From contig NZ_KB900537.1 in the NCBI RefSeq assembly GCF_000378965.1, positions 62,001 to 126,000 of the forward strand: a DNA stretch of 64,000 nucleotides. Reading direction: 5' to 3'. Numbering within the stretch: position 1 is the stretch's first letter; every line of letters begins with the position of its first letter. This DNA is from Thioalkalivibrio thiocyanodenitrificans ARhD 1. Lineage in GTDB: Bacteria > Pseudomonadota > Gammaproteobacteria > Ectothiorhodospirales > Ectothiorhodospiraceae. The position numbers and the translations under genes are program-made. This document shows positions 19,499 to 62,646 of this stretch, piece after piece. The notes below the pieces were generated by a model. It had not been told where the DNA came from, did not search any database, and saw nothing but the letters and a program-made list of their open reading frames with translations.

Positions 19499-19536
19499 AA
19501 TAGATCCTCCCTGCATAGGCCGGGCAGCTTACTTTT

Positions 19537-34514: not shown

Positions 34515-34948
34515 CACGGGCTCTTCAAGTGGGCATCACAGGCCTTTCTGCTTCGGCCGACCCACCTTCTGTCATGAAGGTGCTTCGCGCCATGCTTCTC
34601 TTGTTTCGATGGTCAGAGTATAGCAATTGTAACATCTATACCCCCTCAGAGGCAATTATGCGAAACGCAGGATCCGCCCCAAGTCGCTCAGGCGGAGCGC
34701 GCAGTGCGTCTGTCAATTTAATCTGGAGGGGTTCGCCCGCAGGCGGCGCTCGCGCACCAGGCCCGGAAGGGGCAAACGGAAAGCCCATTACCTGGCCGGC
34801 GAAGGCGTCATCGGTCCGCGACCATAAATACGGCTTATAGAAGCCGCGAAAGCCCCAGGGCAGGGCGGCGGGGTTGATTGAAGGGTGTCGGTCAGGCGCC
34901 ATTGCGCTGCGAGCGCGCCGGCCGCCTGACGGGTTCGAGGGCTGCGGG
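34515..34948 (-). other. Intergenic region upstream of jetABCD
   Basis: About 430 bases without a convincing gene. A TATACT -10-like box lies at 34617-34622 (coding strand TTGCTATACT), 103 bases before jetA, without a clear -35. An open frame (34636-34902, minus; contains GFRGFYKPYLWSRTDDAFAG) runs through the rest but lacks a ribosome site. It may be a decayed or unrecognised gene. Confidence 0.4.
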
Positions 34949-42273: not shown

Positions 42274-42310
42274 CTGAGTGAGCGACAATTCATTCTCAGG
42301 AGGGCAAGTA

Positions 42311-46246: not shown

Positions 46247-46348
46247 GGTTTTACCTTGGCGCGCCGTAAAGCCTCACCCTTCAGGGCGGGGATATAAGGC
46301 GCGGTGTGCGAGGCGCGCCTGAAGGCGCGTGCAGGCCGGCGGTTTCTG

Positions 46349-46357
46349 TCGCTATAC
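46349..46357 (+). promoter_or_regulatory. TCGCTATAC box before tnpB
   Basis: TGTCGCTATACTG lies eight bases before ATG 46366 and is repeated in copy 2 at 52943-52951. It matches the box used by the element's own genes. Confidence 0.45.
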
Positions 46358-46365
46358 TGCCCGGT

Positions 46366-47643
46366 ATGAAGCGTCTACAGGCTTTCAAGTTCGAGCTACG
46401 CCCCGACGGTGAGCAGCGGCGCCAGATGCGCCGCTTCGCCGGCTCCTGCCGATTCGTATTCAACAAGGCCCTGGCGTTGCAAAAAGAACGCTACGAGCGC
46501 GGGGAGAAAAAGCTCGGCTACGCAGAGCTATGTAAGGAGCTGATATCCTGGAAGCGGAATACGGAAACCACCTGGCTTGGCGATACCCCCTCTCAGGCTC
46601 TCCAGCAAACGCTCAAGGACCTTGAGCGGGCTTATACCAACTTCTTCGCCAAGCGGGCCGCCTTCCCGCGCCGCAAGAAGAAAGGCCTTGCCGATAGCTT
46701 TCGCTATCCGCAAGGCTGCAAGCTCGATCAAGGCAACAGCCGGATCTTCCTGCCCAAGCTTGGCTGGCAGCGCTACCGCAACAGCCGAAAGGTGCCCGGT
46801 GTGGTGAAAAACGTCACCGTCAGCCTGGCAGGGGGTAAATGGTTTGTGTCGATCCAAACCGAGCGGGAGGTGGAACAGCCGATCCCGAAAGCTATTAGCG
46901 CCATCGGTATCGACATGGGGGTCACCCGCTTCGCCACCCTTTCGGACGGAACATCCTACGCGCCGCTGAGTAGCTTCAAGCGGCACCAGGACAGGTTGCG
47001 TAACGCGCAACAGTCCTTGAGCCGAAAAGCAAAGTTCAGCAACAACTGGAAGCGGGCAAGGGCCCGCGTCCAGAAGATTCACGCCCGCATCGGCAATGCC
47101 CGCCGGGACTACCTGCACAAGACCTCAACCGCGATCAGCAAAAACCACGCGATGGTGTGTATCGAGGACTTGCAGGTGCGGAATATATCCCAATCCGCGG
47201 CAGGCACCATCGAGCAACCGGGCAGGTATGTTCAGGCCAAGGCCAGCCTGAACAAGGCCATCCTCGACCAGGGCTGGTTCGAATTCCGTCGTCAATTGGA
47301 CTACAAGCTGGCGTGGCAAGGCGGGTGGTTGGTGGCCGTGCCACCACAAAATACCAGCCGCACATGCCCGGCCTGTGGCCATGTCTCGGCGGACAACCGC
47401 CAGACGCAGGCCAGGTTCGTGTGCGTCGGATGCGGTTTCGAGGAGAACGCCGACATGGTCGGCGCGATCAACATCCTCTCTCGCGGGATGCAAAAGCTGC
47501 GAGACGAAGGGCAGGACACGGCGGATGCTTCCGCTGGGTGTGAAAGCACAGCCCGGATCGCCTGTGAAGTGAGCGGTGCAGTAATGCCGCCAGCAGCAGG
47601 AACCTACCGAAGCGACTCAGGAGTGGCTCGACGCCTCGCCTGA
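46366..47643 (+). CDS. tnpB: TnpB RNA-guided nuclease, copy 1
   Basis: 425 residues from ATG 46366. RuvC residues are intact: D183 (AIGIDMGVTRFA), E267 (MVCIEDLQVRN) and D363 (ENADMVGAINIL). A four-Cys zinc finger (CPACGH ... CVGCGFEE) lies between the last two. TnpB cuts DNA next to a TAM under guidance of an omega RNA made from the element's right end. The C-terminus ends RRLA and differs from copy 2, because the right ends differ. Confidence 0.93.
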   Translation: MKRLQAFKFELRPDGEQRRQMRRFAGSCRFVFNKALALQKERYERGEKKLGYAELCKELISWKRNTETTWLGDTPSQALQQTLKDLERAYTNFFAKRAAFPRRKKKGLADSFRYPQGCKLDQGNSRIFLPKLGWQRYRNSRKVPGVVKNVTVSLAGGKWFVSIQTEREVEQPIPKAISAIGIDMGVTRFATLSDGTSYAPLSSFKRHQDRLRNAQQSLSRKAKFSNNWKRARARVQKIHARIGNARRDYLHKTSTAISKNHAMVCIEDLQVRNISQSAAGTIEQPGRYVQAKASLNKAILDQGWFEFRRQLDYKLAWQGGWLVAVPPQNTSRTCPACGHVSADNRQTQARFVCVGCGFEENADMVGAINILSRGMQKLRDEGQDTADASAGCESTARIACEVSGAVMPPAAGTYRSDSGVARRLA

Positions 47644-47706
47644 GCGCCGTAGGAATCCCCGGCCTTCAGGCCGGGGAGGATGTCAATCCTGTGTCTTGAT
47701 ACGGGC
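47600..47706 (+). ncRNA. Predicted omega RNA 3' part and guide, copy 1
   Basis: The right end has a perfect hairpin CCCCGGCC-TTCA-GGCCGGGG just before GGATGTCAA. In TnpB systems the bases directly after the element act as guide, here starting TCCTGTGTCTTGATACGG at 47687. The 5' limit of the RNA cannot be set by eye. Confidence 0.5.
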
Positions 47707-50991: not shown

Positions 50992-51361
50992 TGGTGGAGG
51001 TGACGGGAGTCGAACCCGTGTCCGAAACACATCTCACTGCGTGGTTCTACGTGCGTAGTCAGCGGTTGAATACATCAGGCACTACGCCCGCCGACGGCGC
51101 CTGCCTAACGAACCCCTCTTGTATCAGGCAAAGAACCGAAGGGCTGAAGTGCTTGCCTGTTGCGCGTTTAATCGATACCCGATCACGCCAACGCGCGAGC
51201 GTTAATCGGGCAGATCAGGCCGCGAGGGCGCGATCGAAGCTGTCGTCGTTGGCAGCTATAGCTTTTGTGTGTTGACCCTGCCTCTTAACGGCAGGCGGAA
51301 GGCACACTCTTCCGGCACGCACCACGGAGTTGATAAGCCTCGTCGAAGCCGAAACACCCCC
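50992..51361 (-). ncRNA. ssrA: Transfer-messenger RNA (tmRNA)
   Basis: 370 nt. The 5' end GGGGGTGTTTCGGCTTCGAC pairs with a 3' acceptor strand ending CACCTCC-A-CCA; the T arm reads ACACGGGTTCGACTCCCGT and the CCA is encoded. The tag frame (51215-51253) resumes at GCC and encodes ANDDSFDRALAA then stop, ending in LAA as required for ClpXP/ClpAP degradation. tmRNA rescues stalled ribosomes. It is structurally complete and carried next to the tRNA array. Confidence 0.96.
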
Positions 51362-51373
51362 GGGTATTGTCAA

Positions 51374-51403
51374 AGTATAGCACCTGTAGGCACCGTTTGT
51401 CGA
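51374..51403 (-). promoter_or_regulatory. tmRNA promoter
   Basis: -35 TCGACA and -10 TATACT with an 18-base spacer; the -10 lies 13 bases before the tmRNA 5' end. Confidence 0.7.
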
Positions 51404-51439
51404 GGACGCGGCGCACCCAAGCCCATCACGCACGCTCGC

Positions 51440-52120
51440 CTAAGCGGCGCCCGCAATCTGCTTTCTCACCTGGTTGAGCTCAAAGCGTGCATTCGAGAGG
51501 TCCGTCTTGAGCGCCCTGATCTTCTCGCCCCTCCTGTCAAGATCCCTGAGGATGCGTTGATTCGCCCCCTCGGCGGCCCGCAGTCTCTGGTTGAGCGCTT
51601 CCGGGTCTCCAACGCGAGAGAGCATCTCGGTCATCAGGAACAGCTCACCTTCGACAGACCGCTCGAACTGCATCGCCAGCAGCGCCTTCTCGTACTCACC
51701 ATAGGCCGCTTTGGCGTTGTGGTAGCGAAGCTGCGCCGCCGGGCCGGCCGCGGCCTTGATCCCGCCTCTGGAGGTCACCAGGAGCAATCCCCAGCCATCC
51801 GGGAGGTCGTCAGGGGTAATCACGCCCTGCGGGCACAGGTAGTAGCGCCACCGCCCCAGTCCGACCCTGTCTCCGTTTCGGTGCGGCTTTCGCCGATCCG
51901 CCAGGAAATCGCCGCGAGTCACCTTGACTTCGACCACGGTGGATCCGTCCAGCGGGTGACCCCCCTGGTACCTGAAGCCGATGGCATCTGGGATCTCCCC
52001 CTCGTGCCCGCTCCTGGCTTCACTGAAGGCAATCCTGCACCCTGGCCCTCCTGCGCTTTGCGGGCGCTTCAACCACCTCGTGGCGAGCTCGCAGAGCTGC
52101 GTATGCGTGATGGGCTTCAT
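51440..52120 (-). CDS. PD-(D/E)XK nuclease-like (MmcB-type) protein with coiled coil
   Basis: 226 residues from ATG 52120. The first 150 residues carry a restriction-endonuclease-like core: IPDAIGF, then TVVEVKVTRGDFLADRRKPH, the E-V-K-V-x-R-x-D-F-x-x-D pattern of MmcB-type DNA-repair nucleases. The last 70 residues are a coiled coil (ANQRILRDLDRRGEKIRALK). Likely DNA processing or repair. Confidence 0.7.
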   Translation of the reverse strand: MKPITHTQLCELATRWLKRPQSAGGPGCRIAFSEARSGHEGEIPDAIGFRYQGGHPLDGSTVVEVKVTRGDFLADRRKPHRNGDRVGLGRWRYYLCPQGVITPDDLPDGWGLLLVTSRGGIKAAAGPAAQLRYHNAKAAYGEYEKALLAMQFERSVEGELFLMTEMLSRVGDPEALNQRLRAAEGANQRILRDLDRRGEKIRALKTDLSNARFELNQVRKQIAGAA

Positions 52121-52206
52121 TCTCGAAATCTCCAGTTCGCGCGCGCCGCGCGCATGTATATCTATCAGCGCCCTACCCCGCAAAGGAGCAAGGCGCCTGC
52201 GCCCAG

Positions 52207-52215
52207 GTGTAGCGA
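52207..52215 (-). promoter_or_regulatory. TCGCTACAC promoter motif
   Basis: ATTCGCTACACCTG lies 87 bases before ATG 52120, the C variant at the seventh position. Confidence 0.45.
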
Positions 52216-52265
52216 ATCGCCCGCCCTGGCTGACATCCGCAGCGCGGCGCCGTGGTCGAGTCTCC

Positions 52266-52511
52266 TCAAGCGAGAACGCGGTACTCGAACAGCCCGAAGT
52301 TGACAGGGTTGGCGCGATGCGCCTCGATGCGCTGATTCAGCGCAAAGCGGCTCTCCTCTTGCGCGAGCACGTGCCAGCCGGCCTGCGCCGCGGATGTCGT
52401 CTTCTTACGACAAAGCGCGGCAAAAGGCCGGCGTGGATCCGGGCGAAATGTCTCCGGGGTGAGAGGGCGTCTGGCGCCCGACTGCGATTGATTTCTCGAT
52501 GGGGATCTCAT
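52266..52511 (-). CDS. Small basic protein downstream of the tRNA array
   Basis: 81 residues from ATG 52511 (ACAGGAGGCG upstream), Arg/Pro-rich N-terminus then KKTTSAAQAGWHVLAQEESR. It starts 18 bases past tRNA-His and may be translated from the read-through tRNA transcript. Not recognised. Confidence 0.5.
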   Translation of the reverse strand: MRSPSRNQSQSGARRPLTPETFRPDPRRPFAALCRKKTTSAAQAGWHVLAQEESRFALNQRIEAHRANPVNFGLFEYRVLA

Positions 52512-52529
52512 GACGCCTCCTGTGAAATT

Positions 52530-52606
52530 TGGGGTGTCCGATCGGAGTTGAACCGACATCTGCCTGGGTCACATCCAGGAGCTCTACCTGTTGAGCTACG
52601 AACACC
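52530..52606 (-). tRNA. tRNA-His (GTG)
   Basis: 77 nt with the extra 5' G opposite C73 that marks tRNA-His. Anticodon loop ATGTGAC, CCA encoded. Confidence 0.95.
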
Positions 52607-52631
52607 ATGGGTTGCACTGCAAGGTTGGGTC

Positions 52632-52718
52632 TGGTGCGCGCCGAGGGACTCGAACCCTCACGGCCTGCCGGCCACCTGGTTTTGAAGCAGGCGTGTCTAC
52701 CTGTTCCACCACACGCGC
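52632..52718 (-). tRNA. tRNA-Leu (CAA)
   Basis: 87 nt, class II with variable stem GGCC/GGCC. Anticodon loop TTCAAAA reads UUG codons. The D arm is Leu-type and CCA is encoded. The last acceptor pair (G-G) is mismatched. Confidence 0.88.
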
Positions 52719-52723
52719 GTGAT

Positions 52724-52797
52724 TGGCTGTCGCCCAGGGACTCGAACCCCGGTTTTCTGGTCCAGAACCAGACGTCCTACCACTAGACGAGGCGACA
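52724..52797 (-). tRNA. tRNA-Gln (CTG)
   Basis: 74 nt. Anticodon loop TTCTGGA, stem TCTGG/CCAGA, discriminator G, T1-A72 pair as usual for Gln. CCA encoded. Confidence 0.93.
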
Positions 52798-52806
52798 AGG
52801 ATAAAG

Positions 52807-52848
52807 TGGAGCCGAAGGCGAGATTCGAACTCGCGACCGCCCGGTTAC
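52807..52848 (-). pseudogene. tRNA-Thr (CGT), 3' part, interrupted by TnpB element
   Basis: Contains the 3' anticodon strand, variable loop, T arm and TCCA end. Together with 54280-54314 it forms a 77-nt tRNA with anticodon loop TTCGTAA. The break falls between C34 and G35 of the anticodon. Confidence 0.88.
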
Positions 52849-54279
52849 CTTGGCGCGCCGTAAAGCCTCACCCTTCAGGGCGGGGATATAAGGCGCGGTG
52901 TGCGAGGCGCGCCTGAAGGCGCGTGCAGGCCGGCGGTTTCTGTCGCTATACTGCCCGGTATGAAGCGTCTACAGGCTTTCAAGTTCGAGCTACGCCCCGA
53001 CGGTGAGCAGCGGCGCCAGATGCGCCGCTTCGCCGGCTCCTGCCGATTCGTATTCAACAAGGCCCTGGCGTTGCAAAAAGAACGCTACGAGCGCGGGGAG
53101 AAAAAGCTCGGCTACGCAGAGCTATGTAAGGAGCTGATATCCTGGAAGCGGAATACGGAAACCACCTGGCTTGGCGATACCCCCTCTCAGGCTCTCCAGC
53201 AAACGCTCAAGGACCTTGAGCGGGCTTATACCAACTTCTTCGCCAAGCGGGCCGCCTTCCCGCGCCGCAAGAAGAAAGGCCTTGCCGATAGCTTTCGCTA
53301 TCCGCAAGGCTGCAAGCTCGATCAAGGCAACAGCCGGATCTTCCTGCCCAAGCTTGGCTGGCAGCGCTACCGCAACAGCCGAAAGGTGCCCGGTGTGGTG
53401 AAAAACGTCACCGTCAGCCTGGCAGGGGGTAAATGGTTTGTGTCGATCCAAACCGAGCGGGAGGTGGAACAGCCGATCCCGAAAGCTATTAGCGCCATCG
53501 GTATCGACATGGGGGTCACCCGCTTCGCCACCCTTTCGGACGGAACATCCTACGCGCCGCTGAGTAGCTTCAAGCGGCACCAGGACAGGTTGCGTAACGC
53601 GCAACAGTCCTTGAGCCGAAAAGCAAAGTTCAGCAACAACTGGAAGCGGGCAAGGGCCCGCGTCCAGAAGATTCACGCCCGCATCGGCAATGCCCGCCGG
53701 GACTACCTGCACAAGACCTCAACCGCGATCAGCAAAAACCACGCGATGGTGTGTATCGAGGACTTGCAGGTGCGGAATATGTCCCAATCCGCGGCAGGCA
53801 CCATCGAGCAACCGGGCAGGTATGTTCAGGCCAAGGCCAGCCTGAACAAGGCCATCCTCGACCAGGGCTGGTTCGAATTCCGTCGTCAATTGGACTACAA
53901 GCTGGCGTGGCAAGGCGGGTGGTTGGTGGCCGTGCCACCACAAAATACCAGCCGCACATGCCCGGCCTGTGGCCATGTCTCGGCGGACAACCGCCAGACG
54001 CAGGCCAGGTTCGTGTGCGTCGGATGCGGTTTCGAGGAGAACGCCGACATGGTCGGCGCGATCAACATCCTCTCTCGCGGGATGCAAAAGCTGCGAGACG
54101 AAGGGCAGGACACGGCGGATGCTTCCGCTGGGTGTGAAAGCACAGCCCGGATCGCCTGTGAAGTGAGCGGTGCAGTAATGCCGCCAGCAGCAGGAACCTA
54201 CCGAAGCGACTCAGGAGTGGCTCGAGGCCAGGATGAGCGCCGTAGGAATCCTCGTCCTTTAGGGCGAGGAGGATGTCAA
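52849..54279 (+). mobile_element. IS605-family TnpB-only element, copy 2
   Basis: 1431 bases. Inserted after TTAC in the minus-strand tRNA-Thr gene, opposite to the direction of tRNA transcription. It is nearly identical to copy 1 until the last 60 bases, where changes cluster. No target duplication is visible, so precise excision would restore the tRNA. Confidence 0.9.
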
Positions 54280-54303
54280 GAATCGGGAGCTCTGGCCGGC
54301 TGA
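52960..54303 (+). CDS. tnpB: TnpB RNA-guided nuclease, copy 2 (C-terminally extended)
   Basis: 447 residues. Identical to copy 1 through the catalytic and zinc-finger regions, with one visible substitution (NMSQS for NISQS). A one-base length difference in the right end removes the normal stop, so the frame runs through the omega hairpin into the tRNA remnant and adds about 25 residues. RuvC residues are intact. Whether the tail affects activity is unknown. Confidence 0.9.
   Translation: MKRLQAFKFELRPDGEQRRQMRRFAGSCRFVFNKALALQKERYERGEKKLGYAELCKELISWKRNTETTWLGDTPSQALQQTLKDLERAYTNFFAKRAAFPRRKKKGLADSFRYPQGCKLDQGNSRIFLPKLGWQRYRNSRKVPGVVKNVTVSLAGGKWFVSIQTEREVEQPIPKAISAIGIDMGVTRFATLSDGTSYAPLSSFKRHQDRLRNAQQSLSRKAKFSNNWKRARARVQKIHARIGNARRDYLHKTSTAISKNHAMVCIEDLQVRNMSQSAAGTIEQPGRYVQAKASLNKAILDQGWFEFRRQLDYKLAWQGGWLVAVPPQNTSRTCPACGHVSADNRQTQARFVCVGCGFEENADMVGAINILSRGMQKLRDEGQDTADASAGCESTARIACEVSGAVMPPAAGTYRSDSGVARGQDERRRNPRPLGRGGCQESGALAG
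54190..54299 (+). ncRNA. Predicted omega RNA 3' part and guide, copy 2
   Basis: Right-end hairpin CCTCGTCC-TTTA-GGGCGAGG, different in sequence from copy 1 but still fully paired. The predicted guide starts GAATCGGGAGCTCTGG at 54280, which is tRNA-Thr sequence. Confidence 0.5.
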
Positions 54304-54314
54304 GCTACTTCGGC
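54280..54314 (-). pseudogene. tRNA-Thr (CGT), 5' part, interrupted by TnpB element
   Basis: Acceptor GCCGAAG, D arm and 5' anticodon strand up to the first anticodon base. Partner of 52807-52848. Confidence 0.88.
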
Positions 54315-54324
54315 TTAGAAGAAA

Positions 54325-54414
54325 TGGCGGCGAGGGTGGGATTTGAACCCACGGACCCTAAAGGGCCTCCCGCTTTCGAGGCGGACACGATAAACCAGGC
54401 TCCGTCACCTCGCC
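54325..54414 (-). tRNA. tRNA-Ser (CGA)
   Basis: 90 nt, class II. Anticodon loop CTCGAAA, variable stem GGCCC/GGGTC, CCA encoded. Confidence 0.93.
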
Positions 54415-54430
54415 GCAGAACATTGCTTGC

Positions 54431-56461
54431 CTACTTCAAAGGCAGGTGTTTTCCAGCATGGCCGATCACGACCATACGATCCTCGGCATCCCAAAGAAAA
54501 TGCACCCGCAGGGTCCGCTCGATGTTATCGGCCACCCCGATACCGAGGTGCGCGAACATCGCCCTGCTCTTGCCCTTGTAGAAAAAATGGCGCTTTTGAG
54601 CCAGCGCCTTGCTCTTGCGGATCGTCTCTGACTCCGTGGCGCGATAAGCCTCGCCAAGCCACTCGCGGGCTTCCGCGTCAGGCCGGCCGCTTCGCAGAGA
54701 ATCCACGTAATCGGTCACCAGGGTCCTGAGAAGACCGAACATCCGTGCCCCATACTCAAAGCCGGGCACCTGCGCAGCGCTCTCGTAGGCGGAGTCCAGG
54801 ATCCGGACGCGATCACCCCACAGCCATTCGACAGCCCGCAGCACCTGCTCGGGAGTCGGGCTGCCGGACAGGCATTCGCGCACATCCTGCCATCGCGGGT
54901 CGCGCTCCTGGCCCTCCAGGGATTGTTTCAGCCGCGCCTCGCCGGCCTCGACGCGCTGGCGCAGATCGAACGCCTCCGCTTTGGCTTGAGCGGCCTCCTT
55001 GAGCGCCTCAGCCTCCCGGTCACGCGCCTTCGCCAGCTCGACCTCCAGCTGACGCTTGCCCAACGAGACCTCTTCGAGCGCTTTCTCCAGTTCCCGCGCC
55101 TGATGCTCCTGGGGGTCAGCCTGCACCGACGGCTCCGCTGAGCCTCTGTCAAAAACCTCCCCTTTGCGCCATTCAGAGACCCCTGCGTAGCACGCGCAGA
55201 CCTCCTCCAGCGCATCACTGATCGACAGCTTCGCCGCCTCCAGCTTCGCTGTTGCCTTGGAGAGATCGGCGGCATGAAGCACCGGATCCTTGCTGTAGCG
55301 CGTAACGTCTTGCGCCGCGTCGTGGATCGCCTGCTCTGCCTCCGGGAACTGGTGCAAGAGAACCGGGATCGTGCTGGTGATCCGCTCGAACACGTCTCGA
55401 TGCAATGTGGCGTAATCCCAGAGCGTTTCGCAGGCGTGATACCAGCCGACATACTCCTTGCAAATCTGATCCGTACGGAATTTTCCGGTGGGGATTCCAT
55501 ACTTCTCGGCCGTCTCGTTGAGCCGATCGAGCGTCTTTTGCAGAGGGCCACCCAGGCTGATCTCCTCAAGCACAGCCTCTGGCAGTGCGGTTCGAAGAGC
55601 GGCGTGCGGGCCGATGATGTCGTCCATTCGCGCCGCCGCCTCAAGACTTGCGAATCGCGGCATCTGGCGAAAGACGGCGTTCTTTAGATCGTCCCACCAG
55701 CAGACAAGGTCGTTGACCTTCTCCATGGCTTCACTGAGCGCCCCGCCCTTAACCTCCATGCCAGAGGAGCCTTCGACGAGGTTGTCCCTCTCGTCTTTCA
55801 TGATCTCGGCGAAGCCGAAACGGAACTCCTCGGAACTATCCAGGTAATGGCGGATGACCCCCTGCCAGCCGCATAATGTCGCCAGGGCCACCAGCGCCAG
55901 CAGGAATACTTCGAACTTCTCCAGCCGATGCAGCCCGGGGATGCGATCTTCACCAACGAGACGCTCAATCTCCACCGCCAGCATTAGCCAGCGCGCGCCT
56001 TCACGGGAAAGGGGCTCCTGTGCCGCTTCTCTTTCAAGCCACTGCGCCGCCCACGGGACTTCGCGAGCGAATACTTCCTCGTCGAACTGCTTTGGCGCCG
56101 AAAGACTGTACTGCTTGATGAACCGCTCTAAAGCCCCCCGCTCTACTGAAGGAACCGACCCGGTCTCGCTGAGATTGAATATCAATCTACGGTTGGTTGG
56201 TTCTGCCAGAAGCTCTCCGATCAATTCCTCGGATGACGGCTTCCCCTGGCCCTTCTGCGCGAAGCGCTTCTTGGTCTTGCTCAGAAGCTCGGCGATCTCG
56301 GGGGTCTTTTCATAGGTCTGCATGACTTTCTTGAGAGAGCCGCCCAGATGGCGCGGCAGCACCCCTTGCGAAGAGATTCTCGAGCGAGATGCTGCGTACA
56401 GATAGGCGATGCCTGGAAGGATGTCATCGGCCGCGTGGCTTTCTATGGGAGAAGTATTCAT
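54431..56461 (-). CDS. Large coiled-coil protein inside the tRNA array
   Basis: 676 residues from ATG 56461 (AGAGGACTT upstream). Helical throughout, one hydrophobic stretch (FEVFLLALVALATLCGWQGV), a long coiled coil near residues 460-560 (ELEKALEEVSLGKRQLEVEL) and a distinct C-terminal domain ending HFLWDAEDRMVVIGHAGKHL. That end looks like a small compact domain, reminiscent of RelE/ParE-type strands, but this is only an impression. It lies between tRNA-Ser genes, in the array direction. Function unknown. Confidence 0.65.
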   Translation of the reverse strand: MNTSPIESHAADDILPGIAYLYAASRSRISSQGVLPRHLGGSLKKVMQTYEKTPEIAELLSKTKKRFAQKGQGKPSSEELIGELLAEPTNRRLIFNLSETGSVPSVERGALERFIKQYSLSAPKQFDEEVFAREVPWAAQWLEREAAQEPLSREGARWLMLAVEIERLVGEDRIPGLHRLEKFEVFLLALVALATLCGWQGVIRHYLDSSEEFRFGFAEIMKDERDNLVEGSSGMEVKGGALSEAMEKVNDLVCWWDDLKNAVFRQMPRFASLEAAARMDDIIGPHAALRTALPEAVLEEISLGGPLQKTLDRLNETAEKYGIPTGKFRTDQICKEYVGWYHACETLWDYATLHRDVFERITSTIPVLLHQFPEAEQAIHDAAQDVTRYSKDPVLHAADLSKATAKLEAAKLSISDALEEVCACYAGVSEWRKGEVFDRGSAEPSVQADPQEHQARELEKALEEVSLGKRQLEVELAKARDREAEALKEAAQAKAEAFDLRQRVEAGEARLKQSLEGQERDPRWQDVRECLSGSPTPEQVLRAVEWLWGDRVRILDSAYESAAQVPGFEYGARMFGLLRTLVTDYVDSLRSGRPDAEAREWLGEAYRATESETIRKSKALAQKRHFFYKGKSRAMFAHLGIGVADNIERTLRVHFLWDAEDRMVVIGHAGKHLPLK

Positions 56462-56537
56462 TGCAAGTCCTCTGCGATGGGTCACCGCTTTATAGTTTAC
56501 GTCGAGAGCGCCGCGCGCTCTATCCAGGCGAGGGGCA

Positions 56538-56777
56538 TCAAAACGGCAGGCATTGCTCGTGCTTCCCATACCGCTTACCGCAGTCCCGGCACTTCTCAGG
56601 CATCCACCTGCGCCAGAACCAGTACCCGACCCATTCCTTGAATCGATTGTGCCGCGTGTCTCCCGCCAGGTCTTGGTACGAGAGAAGCTGATCGCAGTGC
56701 GCGCAGTGCAGGTGCTCCGGGGGAGCCGGATCCTCCGGGTGGCCTTCGCAGCCGAACCACCAACATTTCAAGCCCAT
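56538..56777 (-). CDS. Small zinc-binding phage-type protein
   Basis: 79 residues from ATG 56777 (GCGGAGG upstream). LKCWWFGCEGH followed by HCAHCDQ and CRDCGKRYG gives several Cys/His pairs, similar to DUF1660-type prophage proteins. Encoded in the tRNA array. Function unknown. Confidence 0.6.
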   Translation of the reverse strand: MGLKCWWFGCEGHPEDPAPPEHLHCAHCDQLLSYQDLAGDTRHNRFKEWVGYWFWRRWMPEKCRDCGKRYGKHEQCLPF

Positions 56778-56818
56778 ATCAACCTCCGCAGACAAGAATC
56801 AGACCAGTCCCTTCAGCA

Positions 56819-57046
56819 TCACTCACCGGCGATCGCCACCTGAATCTGACGACGCAGATCGTTGAGCGCCGCGCGGTCATCGGGGTGCATTTCCGATAAA
56901 GGGCGATCGAGGATGTTGCTGATCTCGCACTCGGCACGCTTGAGCGTCCCAAGGCGATATCGCTCCGGGGTCATGCCCCTCTTGTTGCACTCCGCGACGA
57001 GCACGGCCTTGGTGGCGCTGGTTTCTCCTGGCGACGTGATGTGCAT
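56819..57046 (-). CDS. Small hypothetical protein
   Basis: 75 residues from ATG 57046 (ACGGAGAA upstream), charged and helical (LKRAECEISNILDRPLSEMH). Part of the set of small genes placed between tRNAs. Not recognised. Confidence 0.55.
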   Translation of the reverse strand: MHITSPGETSATKAVLVAECNKRGMTPERYRLGTLKRAECEISNILDRPLSEMHPDDRAALNDLRRQIQVAIAGE

Positions 57047-57138
57047 GCGATTCTCCGTTGTTGATGTAGTATCGGCCGCGGGGGACCGCCGGACTCTCTG
57101 CGTCAACCCTTTATACTCAGGCCGGCTCGTTTTATGTA

Positions 57139-57233
57139 TGGCGAAGGGCGTGGGATTCGAACCCACGAAACCACAATATGTGTGGTTTTCCCGCTTAGCA
57201 GGCGGGTGCTTTAAGCCGCTCAGCCAGCCCTTC
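57139..57233 (-). tRNA. tRNA-Ser (GCT)
   Basis: 95 nt, class II. Anticodon loop CTGCTAA between CCCGC/GCGGG; long variable arm AACCACA/TGTGGTT. CCA encoded. Confidence 0.95.
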
Positions 57234-57283
57234 GAACAGGATAGAGGCAGGCTCGCGCCCCGGAACATTTCCGGGTTGTTCAT

Positions 57284-57313
57284 AGTATAGCGCGAGTATT
57301 ACCCATTACTCAA
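57284..57313 (-). promoter_or_regulatory. Internal tRNA-array promoter
   Basis: -35 TTGAGT and -10 TATACT with 18-base spacing, about 50 bases before tRNA-Ser (GCT). Confidence 0.6.
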
Positions 57314-57326
57314 GATCAATAATATG

Positions 57327-57420
57327 CGGCGAGAGTGGGATTCGAACCCACGGGCGCTCTTTCTAAGATCGCCTCCCGCGTTCAAGGCGGGCACGATAAA
57401 CCAGACTCCGTCATCTCGCC
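57327..57420 (-). tRNA. tRNA-Ser (TGA), CCA not encoded
   Basis: 94 nt, class II. Anticodon loop CTTGAAC in CCCGC/GCGGG. After discriminator G73 the DNA reads CAT, so CCA must be added. Confidence 0.9.
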
Positions 57421-57544
57421 ATAACTTGCCAGAGCATAGGGCTTTGAGCCCTCGACCTCGTGCTCACAAGGCCGTCGCACACGCTTGCGCCGCCATGCTT
57501 GGAGCTCTCTATCGGCCGGCCCTGCTCCTGGGTTCGGCCAATAT

Positions 57545-57629
57545 TGGTGGCAGCGGAGAGACTCGAACTCTCACGGAATAATCCACTGGATCCTAAATCC
57601 AGCGCGTCTACCGGTTTCGCCACGCTGCC
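57545..57629 (-). tRNA. tRNA-Leu (TAG)
   Basis: 85 nt, class II. Anticodon loop TTTAGGA in CTGGA/TCCAG, CCA encoded. Confidence 0.94.
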
Positions 57630-57634
57630 GTGTT

Positions 57635-57711
57635 TGGTGGTGACGGCGCGGATCGAACGCGCATGCTCGGCCTTATGAATGCCGCGGTATTGCCTCTTCA
57701 CCCACGTCACC
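57635..57711 (-). tRNA. tRNA with CAT anticodon (Met or Ile2)
   Basis: 77 nt, anticodon loop TTCATAA. The acceptor GGTGACG/CGTCACC is perfect and CCA is encoded. It lacks initiator features, so it is an elongator Met or a lysidine-type Ile tRNA. The innermost anticodon pair is A-G. Confidence 0.85.
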
Positions 57712-57725
57712 GAATACAGGGAAGT

Positions 57726-57800
57726 TGGTGCACCTGACGGGAATCGAACCCGTGTCGAGAGGTTGAGAACCTCCAATCCTGACCGCTAGACGACAGGTGC
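57726..57800 (-). tRNA. tRNA-Glu (CTC)
   Basis: 75 nt, anticodon loop TTCTCAA, acceptor GCACCTG/CAGGTGC, CCA encoded. Shares its acceptor with tRNA-Glu (TTC) at 58289. Confidence 0.93.
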
Positions 57801-57845
57801 TGATGGTATATGTCGCTCAAGCCCTTGAGCTGAGCAGACGGAATA

Positions 57846-57921
57846 TGGCGGGCCTGATGGGTTTCGATCCCACTACCTCCTGCGTGACAGGCAGGCGCTC
57901 TCCCGATTGAGCTACAGACCC
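57846..57921 (-). tRNA. tRNA-Asp (GTC)
   Basis: 76 nt, anticodon loop CTGTCAC in CCTGC/GCAGG, discriminator G, CCA encoded. Its 5' end overlaps the stop codon of the gene at 57912. Confidence 0.95.
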
Positions 57922-58163
57922 GGGTTGAAGTCTTCCTTGACGATCGCCTCGTGCCGGCGTTCCTGGATGGTCTTTTTTCGCCACCTTCTGCGCGGATTGC
58001 CGCACATGAAGCACGAACAGGGGCATGGCGTGTCGACCACCATACTGAGGTGTTTGCGCTCGCCGCTGAGGTCCCTTCCCCAGAAGCGGCGCCTGGCGTT
58101 TTTGAGCCGTTCGACATGGTGCCTGCGTATCGATCGGCTTTGATCCTTCACCTGATCATTCAT
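57912..58163 (-). CDS. Small Cys-rich basic protein overlapping tRNA-Asp
   Basis: 83 residues from ATG 58163 (ACGGAGGAGTG upstream). Basic N-terminus, then CPCSCFMCGNPRRRW and KKTIQERRHE, a signature of small conserved proteins in bacteria and phages whose function is unknown. Its TAG stop lies inside tRNA-Asp, so mRNA translation and tRNA processing from one transcript would compete. Confidence 0.65.
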   Translation of the reverse strand: MNDQVKDQSRSIRRHHVERLKNARRRFWGRDLSGERKHLSMVVDTPCPCSCFMCGNPRRRWRKKTIQERRHEAIVKEDFNPGL

Positions 58164-58188
58164 GCACTCCTCCGTAGTTGGTTGATGG

Positions 58189-58284
58189 TGGTACCCCCGG
58201 TGGGACTCGAACCCACACCATGCGCTAATCGGGCGCCATTGCCGGGACATAAATCCGGAGTTCTACCAATTAAACTACGGGGGT
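58189..58284 (-). tRNA. Atypical tRNA with long variable arm (anticodon TAT by symmetry)
   Basis: 96 nt with good acceptor (ACCCCCG/CGGGGGT), D arm, T arm and CCA. The anticodon stem CCGG/CCGG encloses ATTTATGTC, giving TAT with a U33 but an A-C closing mismatch. A class II-type variable arm (GGCGC/GCGC) of about 23 nt follows, which is wrong for tRNA-Ile. Identity uncertain. Confidence 0.7.
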
Positions 58285-58288
58285 AAAT

Positions 58289-58363
58289 TGGTGCACCTGG
58301 CGGGATTCGAACCCGCGTAACGAGCTTGAAAGGCTCGTCTCCTGACCGCTAGATGACAGGTGC
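58289..58363 (-). tRNA. tRNA-Glu (TTC)
   Basis: 75 nt, anticodon loop CTTTCAA in CGAGC/GCTCG, CCA encoded. Confidence 0.95.
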
Positions 58364-58481
58364 GTGGGGGCGGAGGGCTCGAACCAGGGCACGCAACCCA
58401 AGGTAGTAGTGTATGCAACGAAGAGAAAGCGCGCCCTTCCAGGGGAGAAATATGGTAGCTCATTGTTTTGAAAGCAAAATG

Positions 58482-58554
58482 TGAGCCGTGTTGGATTCGA
58501 ACCAACGACCAACGGATTAAAAGTCCGATGCTCTACCAACTGAGCTAACGGCCC
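58482..58554 (-). tRNA. tRNA-Lys (TTT), CCA not encoded
   Basis: 73 nt, anticodon loop CTTTTAA, acceptor GGGCCGT/ACGGCTC. After A73 the DNA reads CAT. Confidence 0.92.
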
Positions 58555-58609
58555 ATAGCAAACCTAATTTTACCGCGACTTCATGCGCGCACACGTACGA
58601 CTACAGATA

Positions 58610-58664
58610 AGAACCTCGCCGCCCGGGTAAAAACCGGGTGCTCTTCCATCTGAGCTACACCCCC
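58610..58664 (-). pseudogene. Truncated tRNA-Lys (TTT)-like fragment
   Basis: Acceptor 5' strand GGGGGTG, a full D arm and a perfect anticodon arm (CCCGG-TTTTTAC-CCGGG), then the sequence breaks off in the T arm. There is no TTCGA loop or 3' acceptor. Confidence 0.75.
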
Positions 58665-58722
58665 TTTGGGACATCTTCTCCCCGGCGCAAACGCGAGGAC
58701 CGCTTGCGCAAGAGGAATGAAT

Positions 58723-58798
58723 TGGAGCTGGCGACAGGAGTCGAACCTGCGACCCGCTGATTACAAATCAGCCGCTCTACCAACTGAGCTACACCAGC
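58723..58798 (-). tRNA. tRNA-Thr (TGT)
   Basis: 76 nt, anticodon loop TTTGTAA, CCA encoded. It can also read ACG codons served by the broken tRNA-Thr (CGT). Confidence 0.94.
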
Positions 58799-58799
58799 G

Positions 58800-58873
58800 T
58801 GGATCACCCGCCAGGACTCGAACCTGGATCTCAAGGGCCAAAGCCTTGGGTCCTACCATTAGACGACAGGTGA
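58800..58873 (-). tRNA. tRNA-Gln (TTG)
   Basis: 74 nt, anticodon loop CTTTGGC in CAAGG/CCTTG, CCA encoded. One base separates it from tRNA-Thr (TGT). Confidence 0.93.
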
Positions 58874-58979
58874 GCTGAAAAGAAGATCGAAGGAAACTTC
58901 CAGCCTCCGGACGAGAGACTGTCCCGCTTGTCCAAGGCGACGGATCTGAACAACCCGCTTCCCTTCGAAAACTGGAAAT

Positions 58980-59056
58980 TGGTCCGGGTAGAGAGATTCG
59001 AACTCCCGACATCCTGCTCCCAAAGCAGGCGCGCTACCAGACTGCGCTATACCCGG
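58980..59056 (-). tRNA. tRNA-Pro (TGG)
   Basis: 77 nt, anticodon loop TTTGGGA in CCTGC/GCAGG, acceptor CCGGGTA/TACCCGG, CCA encoded. Confidence 0.95.
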
Positions 59057-59070
59057 GTACTGACTTTAAC

Positions 59071-59146
59071 TGGTGGACCGTGTAGGGCTCGAACCTACGA
59101 CCATCGGATTAAGAGTCCGGAGCTCTACCAACTGAGCTAACGACCC
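59071..59146 (-). tRNA. tRNA-Lys (CTT)
   Basis: 76 nt, anticodon loop CTCTTAA, acceptor has two G-U pairs, CCA encoded. Confidence 0.93.
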
Positions 59147-59169
59147 ATGAAAACCTGCTGCGTGAAGAT

Positions 59170-59244
59170 TGGTAGGGACGGAGAATTTCGAAATCTCGAC
59201 ATCCGCTTTGTGAGAGCGGCGCTCTGCCTCTGAGCTACGTCCCT
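59170..59244 (-). tRNA. tRNA-Val (CAC)
   Basis: 75 nt, anticodon loop CTCACAA in CCGCT/AGCGG, A1-T72, CCA encoded. The T stem has one weak pair. Confidence 0.9.
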
Positions 59245-59251
59245 CTTTGAT

Positions 59252-59328
59252 TGGCACCCCCGGCAGGGCTCGAACCTGCAACCTTCGAGTTAGGAACACG
59301 ACGCTCTATCCAGTTGCGCTACAGGGGT
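59252..59328 (-). tRNA. tRNA-Arg (CCT)
   Basis: 77 nt, anticodon loop TTCCTAA, discriminator G, CCA encoded. The anticodon stem has one T-T mismatch. Confidence 0.9.
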
Positions 59329-59402
59329 GTGGTCGATCGCAAGCGCGCCTCGATGCCGCAAGAGAAGCAGCGCTGCCCTGTGCGCCTCGAGGCCAGGCCA
59401 AT

Positions 59403-59479
59403 TGGCGCCCCCGGAGGGACTCGAACCCCCAACTATCGATTTAGAAGACCGATGCTCTATCCGGTTGAACTACAGGGGC
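59403..59479 (-). tRNA. tRNA-Arg (TCT)
   Basis: 77 nt, anticodon loop CTTCTAA, acceptor GCCCCTG/CGGGGGC, CCA encoded. Confidence 0.94.
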
Positions 59480-59482
59480 GGA

Positions 59483-59926
59483 TCAGGGTTTCTCGGAAGG
59501 GGTCGATACAGCCGCCATGCGTTCGAGATAACGCTCTTCGAGCTCCGGCCGGTAGAAGCCATGACCGCTGACCTCTTCGTAGATCTGACGCATCAGGCTC
59601 AACGCGGCGTCCAGGCGCCTCTGGTGTTCGCCCTCGCCATAGAGCTGATCGTAGTACCCCGGGCAACCAAGGCCGTGGTCATAGCGAAGCGCCATGCTCA
59701 TGAGAAGGCCCTTAAGGGGCTCTTCTGAGAGCGCCACGCACGGCTGCGTACCGCCACATTCAAACCATTGAGCCCAAGTCAGATCGGCAATGGTTTGCGC
59801 ATCCTCCACGGGAGGGTGATCGAAGATCTCGTGGTTGCCTGTCATGCAGGCCTGATCAAAGTTCCGTGCCGCCCAGGCGGCCAGGAAAGAAGCGATAAAT
59901 TGCGCTTTGAAGGTCTGCTCGTCCAT
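59483..59926 (-). CDS. Hypothetical protein in tRNA array
   Basis: 147 residues from ATG 59926 (GAGGCG upstream), helical with Trp/Tyr-rich centre (ADLTWAQWFECGGTQPCVAL). Ends three bases before tRNA-Arg (TCT), so it must share the tRNA transcript. Not recognised. Confidence 0.6.
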   Translation of the reverse strand: MDEQTFKAQFIASFLAAWAARNFDQACMTGNHEIFDHPPVEDAQTIADLTWAQWFECGGTQPCVALSEEPLKGLLMSMALRYDHGLGCPGYYDQLYGEGEHQRRLDAALSLMRQIYEEVSGHGFYRPELEERYLERMAAVSTPSEKP

Positions 59927-60116
59927 CGATTGGCGCCTCGACAAAGGAAAGTGGGGTGGGCAGTTATCAACCGCACCCCCTTCCTCCCGTGGGTGCGACG
60001 GCTGCGGGGAGCGCCGGAATTAGGTGGGCGCGACATTACCGGTGGCTTTACCTTCCGTAACCCGCGGCGAGCGTTGTTGATGAGCGCTGACTGTGACACA
60101 ACGCCCATCAGGAATT

Positions 60117-60192
60117 TGGCTGGCACGGTAGGGGTCGAACCTACGACCACTCGAGTAACAGTCGAGCGCTCTACCAACTGAGCTACGCGCCA
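60117..60192 (-). tRNA. tRNA-Asn (GTT)
   Basis: 76 nt, anticodon loop CTGTTAC in CTCGA/TCGAG, discriminator G, CCA encoded. Confidence 0.95.
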
Positions 60193-60229
60193 AAAAACAA
60201 GGACAGGGACAGTATGTTTCGCCCTGTCT
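60193..60229 (-). terminator. Terminator-like hairpin before tRNA-Asn
   Basis: Minus strand: GACAGGG pairs with CCCTGTC across a 13-base loop, followed by CTTGTTTTTT that ends directly at tRNA-Asn. Confidence 0.6.
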
Positions 60230-60850
60230 GGCTTGACCCGGTAAAGTTTGATAGCAGAACCGGTACATACACAGCGCGATTAAACGCCTTCAAGCCCTTC
60301 GCTTGGCACTCTCTCTTTGGGGTCAGAGGCGACAACCCTCCAAGACGCAGGCTTCTAGGCGGCTCACGGCGGGATTGGCCAATCCCCCATAACCACCTGT
60401 CGACGCCGGACATGGACTGTCATGCCAAACATCGACCCCTTTCGGGACGCGCCCAGCTTTCGCCGCAGCACGTTAAGCGCATTACCTGCACCAAGGACGC
60501 TTTATTCAGCCATCGGACATTGACTTTTCAGAGTCATGTCATAACCGTGAGTGTTGATTGCGCTTCCAGGAAAAGCATTAAAACCTGGTCGGGATTGACA
60601 GAAAAACGGTTGGCGCCGCCCTCTTGCCGATCCCCTGGTACTGCACCGCCTTGAGCCGCCAAGCACACTAGCGATGCGCTGCGTTCTGGGAAGTAACTCG
60701 GGAAAACACCCTAAAACCTTCCTCGCAGCCCCTCTATCCCTAACGGGCCGGTATCCGCGCACACAGACACCGGTTTCATTGGCGGAGGTCTCGCCAAATA
60801 CTGTTCACTTACCCAATCCAAAACCCTCCGGGATAGCAACCACCGAGGGG
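60193..60850 (-). ncRNA. Candidate large noncoding RNA in the tRNA array
   Basis: About 660 bases without a credible gene on either strand, bounded by a TATACT box (60857-60862) and a terminator-like hairpin (60193-60229). Internal pairing is visible: GGGATTGGCCAATCCC (60371-60386), CCC-TTTC-GGG near 60440 and CCGGT...ACCGG at 60748-60773. Large structured RNAs such as GOLLD and ROOL are known to sit beside tRNAs in phages and mobile elements. No match to RNase P, 6S or SRP RNA was seen. Class unknown. Confidence 0.45.
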
Positions 60851-60856
60851 CGCCAT

Positions 60857-60862
60857 AGTATA
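60857..60862 (-). promoter_or_regulatory. -10-like TATACT before the candidate noncoding RNA
   Basis: Coding strand TTCCTATACTATGG. The -35 position (AGGAAT) is weak. Confidence 0.4.
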
Positions 60863-60947
60863 GGAACCGCCTCGCCGGAAATTCCTCCCGGGGCCCGCAC
60901 TCCAAGCCGTGCGACCCTGAGAACCAGTCAGAGCCTGGTTCGAAAAA

Positions 60948-61033
60948 TGGTGGGCAGGGAGGGATTCGAACCCCCAAAGTCGGAGACGCCAGATTTACAG
61001 TCTGGTGCAGCTCGCCGTCGCTGCCGCCTACCC
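60948..61033 (-). tRNA. tRNA-Tyr (GTA)
   Basis: 86 nt, class II. CAGA-CTGTAAA-TCTG anticodon arm, variable arm GTCTCCGAC, acceptor GGGTAGG/CCTGCCC, CCA encoded. Confidence 0.94.
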
Positions 61034-61388
61034 AGTGCGGCGCCAGGGAGCACGGCCTGGCACCACCCTCCTATCCTGGCCAGGAGAAGCCACCACTCGC
61101 CGTACCGAGGGATAGGGTGCGCGCTGATCCCCTCGACACCATTCGAGGTTGAGATGCGCGCCCTGGTATGCCGGGTCTCCATTTAAGATCAGCCCTTGCC
61201 CGAGGCGCTTGCCTCGGGCAGTTGCATTCAGCGGGCCCGATACTCCACCGAACTAAGCGGCCAGTGGCGGCGCTCGGAACCTGCACGCCGCGGAGTCACA
61301 ATCCCTGAACACCTAGCGGACCGCCCGTCCGCTCATCCCGCGCCCGCGAGACTTAAGCGTAGCTACTTCAGTGCCAGGGTTGTTGTGA
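61034..61388 (-). other. Gene-free spacer between tRNA-Gly and tRNA-Tyr
   Basis: 355 bases with no convincing gene. It holds a strong hairpin, GCCCGAGGC-AAGC-GCCTCGGGC (61198-61220 region), without a T run, and several G/C-rich inverted segments. It is transcribed between two tRNAs if the array is one operon, so it is either a processed spacer or a structured RNA. Confidence 0.5.
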
Positions 61389-61464
61389 TGGTGCGGGCAG
61401 TGAGGTTCGAACTCACGACCTCCTCGTTGGCAACGAGGCGCTCTACCAGCTGAGCCATGCCCGC
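61389..61464 (-). tRNA. tRNA-Gly (GCC), first tRNA of the array
   Basis: 76 nt, anticodon loop TTGCCAA in CCTCG/CGAGG, acceptor GCGGGCA/TGCCCGC, CCA encoded. Confidence 0.96.
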
Positions 61465-62361: not shown

Positions 62362-62543
62362 GGTACCCCCTTGTTTATCGTTAGATGCCAGCGCTTATCC
62401 AGGGGTGCGTGACGGGCATGAGATGTAGCGTGCTGCGAACACCCCCGTGAGGCCTTGAAGCGCCTTGTCGCAGCAGCCGGATCCTGGTAACAGACCCCTC
62501 CCTTATGCGCTTACAACCCTTGAGACTTACGGCTGCTGAGAAT

Positions 62544-62552
62544 GTGTAGGGA
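62544..62552 (-). promoter_or_regulatory. TCCCTACAC promoter motif
   Basis: TTTCCCTACACATT box reading toward the membrane-protein genes, 183 bases before ATG 62361. Confidence 0.4.
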
Positions 62553-62606
62553 AAACACCTCCGAAACCGGCAATGTCTACGGACCCCTGAGGTTGAGTAC
62601 AACCGC

Positions 62607-62615
62607 TCCCTACAC
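62607..62615 (+). promoter_or_regulatory. TCCCTACAC promoter motif, cca
   Basis: GCTCCCTACACAAGG box 31 bases before ATG 62647. Confidence 0.55.
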
Positions 62616-62646
62616 AAGGAAGGCAATTACGAAAGAGGATTTAGTT

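What the first reader, a model, noticed from the sequence alone, without database searches (positions are those of the whole stretch)
52807..54314. TnpB element inserted inside the anticodon of tRNA-Thr (CGT), with a guide that targets the empty tRNA site
Joining 54280-54314 and 52807-52848 (minus strand) gives a complete 77-nt tRNA with anticodon CGT. The element splits it between anticodon bases 34 and 35. The site is TTAC followed by GAATCGGGAGC. The first bases after the right end are the natural omega RNA guide, so TnpB copy 2 should cut any intact copy of this tRNA gene next to TTAC, including a matching host gene. This can homing-copy the element or punish loss of it. The anticodon is a highly conserved target, so it is a smart landing site.
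Basis: partly seen in the sequence, partly recalled or inferred. Interest (0 to 1): 0.82.

Follow-up and report, generated by a model that had tools for sequence, protein, structure and literature searches.

The report
TnpB transposon splitting a plasmid tRNA
A small RNA-guided jumping gene has landed in the anticodon of a spare threonine tRNA gene on a bacterial megaplasmid; its guide fits that empty site, as such guides normally do, but does not match the host's own tRNA gene.

Summary
A TnpB-only IS200/IS605-type element (52849-54279) lies 3' of TTAC; joining the flanks gives a 77-nt tRNA-Thr(CGT) split between bases 34 and 35. TTAC as TAM is supported three ways: the flank, the left-end guide tetranucleotide AAAG, and TTAC-type residues at TnpB TAM-contact positions 77, 116, 117. 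That the guide GAATCGGGAGCTCTGG fits the uninterrupted site is a sound inference, but it is the general TnpB property. "Highly conserved target" and "matching host gene" are not supported: the chromosomal tRNA-Thr(CGT) has 5 mismatches in 16, and 49 such sites found in 48 of 58 genomes have 4-7. A tRNA insertion was seen only here: 1 of 54 rows with both flanks, 0 of 6 other genome hits, 0 of 53 viral stretches. Unexpected: copy 2 looks hybrid, its last 61 nt identical to the right end of a tnpA+tnpB element on the same plasmid. The plasmid also carries 37 detected tRNA genes, tmRNA and tRNA-repair-type enzymes. No activity was tested. Verdict: new member of a known kind with instructive details.

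The parts
52849..54279 (+). TnpB-only IS200/IS605-type element, copy 2 (1431 bp)
52845..52848 (+). TTAC: left cleavage site / TAM, part of the tRNA anticodon loop read on the other strand
52862..52865 (+). AAAG left-end guide tetranucleotide (GL)
   Evidence: IS608 set in PMC5934647 passages
52866..52885 (+). left-end subterminal imperfect hairpin
   Evidence: sequence; inverted repeats
52960..54303 (+). tnpB (447 aa from ATG); HTH_OrfB_IS605, OrfB_IS605 and Cas12f1-like_TNB domains; the frame runs through the right end and stops 24 nt beyond it, in the tRNA half
54160..54279 (+). right end / predicted omega RNA scaffold (stretch aligned)
   Evidence: alignment A1 and consensus fold of 26 right ends; sub-threshold HgcC match 54169-54292
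54219..54279 (+). 61-nt right-end stretch identical to that of the tnpA+tnpB element at C2 about 190 kb (L126)
54246..54249 (+). GAAT right-end guide tetranucleotide (GR)
   Evidence: sequence; IS608 GR
54250..54269 (+). right-end hairpin
54276..54279 (+). TCAA right cleavage site
54280..54295 (+). predicted 16-nt guide GAATCGGGAGCTCTGG
   Evidence: guide length from PMC8612924
54280..54314 (-). 5' half (35 nt) of tRNA-Thr(CGT)
52807..52848 (-). 3' half (42 nt) of tRNA-Thr(CGT)
46255..47686 (+). copy 1 of the element, TTAC flank, 99.2% identical, with a different right end

Best explanation
A TnpB-only IS200/IS605 element following the IS608 end rule inserted 3' of TTAC in the anticodon loop of a plasmid tRNA-Thr(CGT) gene that the chromosome backs up, most likely moved by a TnpA acting in trans, and broke that gene. 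Its omega RNA would take GAATCGGGAGCTCTGG as guide, so TnpB would cut the re-formed empty site or an element-free copy of the same plasmid and favour copies that keep the element. The host's own tRNA-Thr(CGT) gene should be spared because it differs where the guide reads. Shown: anatomy, boundaries, agreement of TTAC with GL and TnpB residues, lack of a matching host gene. Inferred: RNA production, cleavage, retention or drive, TnpA in trans.
For: Flank join gives tRNA-Thr(cgt). Flank and GL agree in all 55 rows where both were read. TnpB has the expected domains and aligns with ISDra2 TnpB over residues 3-375, with D183, E267, D363 and CPxCG/CVxCG-type cysteines in place (that these acids are the catalytic ones is partly recalled). 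By the stricter test, the columns that separate the 7 other TTAC rows from TGAC rows are 77, 116 and 117, which align to ISDra2 F77, T123, N124, named TAM contacts in PMC10097598 (passage); copy 2 has the TTAC states. A consensus fold of 26 right ends keeps 21 pairs, 10 with changes on both sides in at least one sequence. A Y1 transposase gene covering the whole domain model lies beside a related tnpB on the same plasmid. Spread of such elements in plasmid populations through TnpB is reported in the preprint PMC11870625 (abstract and discussion read).
Against: No expression or cleavage data. No tnpA in the element. The left-end hairpin is imperfect. Copy 2 has a right end shared with another element and an altered TnpB C terminus, so the fit of TnpB and omega RNA is untested. 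No uninterrupted orthologue of the gene was found, so the empty site is reconstructed only. A looser test gives six separating columns (40, 74, 77, 116, 117, 343), three of them not contacts, and the TTAC rows form one side of one branch, so shared ancestry could explain the association. No control was run for the consensus fold, whose 26 rows were picked from 56 for ease of alignment.
Confidence: 0.8

Rival explanations
1. Dead passenger: the element inserted by chance in a dispensable tRNA, and its TnpB or omega RNA (shared right end, altered C terminus) no longer works. Partly compatible with the best explanation, so the odds do not add to one.
For: No tnpA inside; right-end replacement and altered C terminus; a chromosomal tRNA-Thr(CGT) exists.
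Against: Acidic residues, zinc-ribbon cysteines and TTAC-type contact residues present; the hairpin of the replaced right end still pairs; only one SNP between the copies in the first 1377 positions.
Confidence: 0.25
2. Strategic tRNA targeting: the family prefers tRNA anticodon loops and its guide attacks conserved tRNA genes in hosts and rivals.
For: TTACGAA sites of tRNA-Thr(CGT) type are common: 49 places in 48 of 58 genomes.
Against: 1 of 54 rows with both flanks in a tRNA; none of 6 other genome hits and none of 53 viral stretches with the right-end tail plus tRNA-Thr signature is a right end; the guide has 4-7 mismatches to all 49 places.
Confidence: 0.03
3. Intron-like insertion (IStron, or a group I intron at 34/35) that splices out and leaves the tRNA working.
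For: Some bacterial tRNA group I introns sit in the anticodon (recalled); IStrons combine IS parts with group I introns (PMC4227781 passages).
Against: No intron family among the 8 Rfam matches up to E 5 on either strand; the tRNA is antisense to tnpB.
Confidence: 0.01

Closest known systems
IS608 (IS200/IS605 family, Helicobacter pylori)
   Same: TTAC left cleavage site, AAAG GL, GAAT GR, TCAA right cleavage site, subterminal hairpins (published set seen in passages)
   Different: no tnpA inside this element; not compared with IS608 sequence itself
ISDra2 TnpB, RNA-guided nuclease with TTGAT TAM
   Same: homologous TnpB (residues 3-375), right-end RNA layout and 16-nt guide rule
   Different: flank TTAC; S76, Q77, Q116, G117 at the places aligned to K76, F77, T123, N124
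TnpB as gene drive of IS in plasmids (preprint PMC11870625)
   Same: TnpB element on a plasmid with a guide for the element-free site
   Different: only inferred here; the target lies in a tRNA gene of a tRNA array
tRNA array units on plasmids (PMC12803027, outline and passages; PMC5966550, search listing only)
   Same: clustered tRNA genes on a large plasmid; the array tRNA-Thr(CGT) has a differing chromosomal counterpart
   Different: one tRNA gene is interrupted by a TnpB element; redundancy of the other array tRNAs with this chromosome was not tested

Membership tests
IS200/IS605 with IS608-type ends | cleavage-site/guide tetranucleotide rule (TTAC-AAAG, TCAA-GAAT) | tested here: met
IS200/IS605 with IS608-type ends | insertion 3' of the target without duplication | tested here: met
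   flanks join to a gap-free 77-nt tRNA
IS200/IS605 with IS608-type ends | subterminal hairpins at both ends | tested here: met
   the left one imperfect
IS200/IS605 with IS608-type ends | own Y1 TnpA | tested here: not met
   none of the 9 Y1_Tnp matches in the genome lies in the element; hence a TnpB-only derivative
TnpB RNA-guided nuclease | OrfB/RuvC-type and TNB zinc-ribbon domains with acidic residues in place | tested here: met
TnpB RNA-guided nuclease | TAM equal to the transposon target site | tested here: inconclusive
   TTAC-type residues at aligned TAM contacts; no cleavage assay
TnpB RNA-guided nuclease | right-end omega RNA with the flanking guide | not testable with these tools
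   only a predicted consensus fold
IStron / tRNA group I intron | self-splicing intron in the insertion | tested here: not met
   no intron family up to E 5 on either strand

The most novel reading that the evidence does not exclude
In this TnpB clade the target tetranucleotide, the element's guide tetranucleotide and the TnpB TAM-contact residues have switched together (TGAC, TTAC, perhaps TGAT), and the copy at hand also captured the right-end/omega RNA module of the resident tnpA-bearing element, so that one transposase and a shared omega RNA pool serve several elements of one megaplasmid; its guide reads a part of the tRNA that tells plasmid from host, giving a drive against element-free relatives of the plasmid that leaves the host tRNA unharmed.
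Probability: 0.2. Interest if true: 0.6.

Novelty: new member of a known kind. Interest (0 to 1): 0.38.

Why it matters
As a single insertion it is ordinary. It matters as a clear natural case: a TnpB guide aimed at a plasmid tRNA but mismatched to the host's counterpart, a right-end (omega RNA) stretch shared between two otherwise 67-70% identical elements of one plasmid, and a set of close TnpB relatives in which target site and TAM-contact residues differ together, which offers ready-made swap experiments on TnpB TAM specificity.

Tried and rejected
Host-gene targeting: rejected on mismatches. The pattern demands GCTCTNCC and so would miss D-arms like that of the interrupted gene (GCTCTGGCC). 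(20-mer, up to 3 mismatches, 58 relatives) was run to cover that: 6 of 58 genomes had a hit, one being the element's own junction; the other five places were not examined, the closest being G045 (2 mismatches, full TTAC and first 10 guide bases); the reversed-pattern control gave 2 hits. The group counts typed into the script were partly wrong (they sum to 46) but were not used; the counts in this report come from the list (49 places).

Recurrent tRNA insertion: the right-end tail plus tRNA-Thr signature gave 7 of 369 genomes (reversed control: 2), one being this element; the other 6 lack the GGAAT/hairpin of a right end; of 53 viral stretches two carried a GGAAT string upstream (L183, L187) but no right-end hairpin by eye. 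The signature covers tRNA-Thr and this right-end type only. Of the 56 mapped rows, L059 and L062 have no sequence beyond the right end, so 54 could be tested.

Hairpin-loop targeting (tRNA stem-loop as single-stranded target): 3 of 54 joints fold better than 50 shuffles at 0.05, about chance, and this site is not among the 12 strongest (RNA energies).

Intron reading: no intron family hit. Uninterrupted relatives: the array piece 52500-52806 matches relatives over single tRNAs only, no plasmid or phage record covers 80% of the array; the 712-aa neighbour has only distant plasmid relatives and no close viral one; the 19-kb stretch L224 has 21 tRNAs but no Thr(CGT); L225 and L226 hold one tRNA each. 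Host organism: not identified by name.

Right-end origin in copy 2: direction is inferred, not proven. The TGAT group gave 7 separating columns, 1 at a TAM contact, P 0.12, not significant; the TTAC P of 4e-6 treats columns as independent and ignores phylogeny, and the looser test gave 6 columns of which 3 are contacts. The script stopped with an error in its last lines, after the tree and most of the identity table had printed; its bootstrap had not settled.

Literature: no paper on TnpB elements in tRNA anticodons was seen in the listings, nor one on natural co-switching of TAM and TnpB residues in the listing; the library lacks most subscription papers, and listings show titles and abstract starts only.

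Full report
Check of the observation. The DNA at 52807-54314 is as reported. The minus-strand flanks join to a 77-nt sequence which ARAGORN calls tRNA-Thr(cgt) with the anticodon from position 35; the 5' piece is 35 nt long, so the break is between anticodon bases 34 and 35. Acceptor, D and T stems are paired in ARAGORN's drawing; the anticodon stem has one A31.C39 mismatch. The tRNA scan of the window does not list the gene as it stands.

Ends of the element. One search found 242 relatives of the TnpB in genome contigs and kept the best 80 (79 loci). In these, the window and 8 loci of own or related genomes (88 sources), left and right ends were paired in 65 cases; 9 were dropped because no T[TG]A[CT] flank was seen next to the left-end motif. 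In the 56 rows left (near-copies occur; L081 gives three rows, one with a doubtful right end), flank and left-end guide tetranucleotide go together: TGAC-CAAG 39, TTAC-AAAG 9, TGAT-CAAA 7, and one TGAC with the guide unread. For IS608 the published set is TTAC with AAAG and TCAA with GAAT (PMC5934647, passages). Copy 2 has all four. The element is therefore 52849-54279, and the uninterrupted site is TTAC followed by GAATCGGGAGCTCTGG.

TAM of this TnpB. By a strict test, the TnpB columns separating the 7 other TTAC rows from the TGAC rows (37 of 39 readable there) are 77 (Q against H), 116 (Q against K) and 117 (G, once R, against Q); a looser test adds 40, 74 and 343. Columns 77, 116, 117 align to F77, T123 and N124 of ISDra2, which PMC10097598 names as TAM contacts (passage). 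Copy 2 has Q77, Q116, G117 and the serine at 76 shared by the TTAC rows. The hypergeometric P of the strict test is 4e-6 (3 of 3 columns among 7 contacts in 375), but it ignores phylogeny: the 9 TTAC rows form one side of one branch (96/98; 53 rows, bootstrap not settled), so this is one historical change. For TGAT against TGAC, 7 columns separate, one a contact (56), P 0.12: suggestive only.

Guide targets. The chromosomal tRNA-Thr(CGT) (C1:2216258) keeps TTAC but mismatches the guide at 6, 8, 9, 15 and 16. In 58 relatives the pattern TTACGAA-N6-GCTCTNCC found 49 places in 48 genomes; against the guide 7 places have 4 mismatches and 42 have 5-7. The pattern would miss D-arms like that of the interrupted gene; a 20-mer search with up to 3 mismatches found hits in 6 of 58 genomes, one the element's own junction, the others not examined, with 2 hits for the reversed control. 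The exact 18-mer is absent from 369 genomes of the class and from the viral contigs. On the plasmid and the small contig the 16-nt guide with up to 3 mismatches has two places besides the element's own junction, neither behind TTAC. PMC11043419 (passages) reports strong loss of action on mismatches at a weak TAM but tolerance of single mismatches at a strong one, so sparing of the host gene is likely, not proven.

Is the site special? 5 of 148 TTAC sites of the window outside the elements lie in tRNA genes. Of the mapped rows, 54 have both flanks; only this one joins to a tRNA. A right end joined to a tRNA-Thr signature was seen nowhere else in 369 genomes or the viral contigs. The tRNA looks expendable: the chromosome has its own tRNA-Thr(CGT). 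PMC12803027 (passages) says that array tRNAs of M. [quoted passage not shown] here the two tRNA-Thr(CGT) genes differ in D-arm and anticodon stem, where the guide reads, and also in acceptor and T stems.

Shared right end. Copy 1 (46255-47686) and copy 2 differ by one SNP in the first 1377 positions and by 10 differences in the last 54. The last 61 nt of copy 2 are identical to the right end of the tnpA+tnpB element at C2 about 190 kb (L126), whose TnpB is 67-70% identical. Copy 1's right end is within 3 mismatches in 54 (ungapped) of nine other rows; that of copy 2 differs by 9 or more from every row but L126. So copy 2 most likely took its right end, part of the predicted omega RNA scaffold, from that element; the direction is inferred. 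The hairpin still pairs, with changes on both sides (26 of the 56 rows were aligned, and no control was run for the fold). The change shifts the reading frame, so TnpB of copy 2 ends at 54303 in the tRNA half, while that of copy 1 ends at 47643. A benefit such as better fit to the resident TnpA is a guess.

Mechanism. By PMC8612924 (passages) TnpB with right-end RNA is proposed to cut the donor joint so that the element is restored by repair; the preprint PMC11870625 (abstract and discussion) reports such elements helping IS-carrying plasmids displace others. Applied here: retention, and drive against element-free copies of this plasmid. Nothing in the sequence shows activity; only the anatomy is shown.

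Verdict. Confirmed anatomy, ordinary logic, overstated reach. The TAM co-switch and the shared right end are the parts worth a bench test.

Noticed in passing
window 42278-44569: 764-aa protein with AAA_33 (kinase-type), calcineurin-like phosphoesterase and T4-type RNA ligase domains: a tRNA-repair-like enzyme on the tRNA-array plasmid; plasmid relatives over 90% of its length at 33-36% identity in Bacillus, Priestia and Erythrobacter.
   Followed up: partly
window 62542-63876: Protein with poly(A) polymerase head, RNA-binding and HD domains, like CCA-adding enzymes, near the array.
   Followed up: no
contig C2 28728-42255 and window 50992-61464: 37 tRNA genes detected on one 301,689-bp plasmid (14 in 28.7-42.3 kb, 23 in the window, plus tmRNA), each anticodon once except Met(cat), all 20 amino acids covered; with the repair-type enzymes it looks like a tRNA replacement and repair kit.
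   Followed up: partly
window 27862-34517: Wadjet-like proteins: JetD C-terminal domain, an SbcC/RAD50-like protein, JetA.
   Followed up: no
window 16011-17093 and 17276-19516: Plasmid-borne RecA and RecD2-like helicase.
   Followed up: no
contig C2: All 5 TNB-domain (PF07282) matches of the genome lie on the plasmid, none on the 3.4-Mb chromosome.
   Followed up: partly
L043 8221-8295 / L044 1304-1378 (Aromatoleum buckelii plasmid pU120): A tRNA-Thr(cgt) gene on a plasmid between two TnpB elements with identical TnpB rows.
   Followed up: no
window 54169-54292: Right end plus guide gives a full-length but sub-threshold match to Rfam HgcC (26.5 bits, gathering 50, E 0.0012), a hint that HgcC RNAs may be related to omega RNAs.
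   Followed up: no
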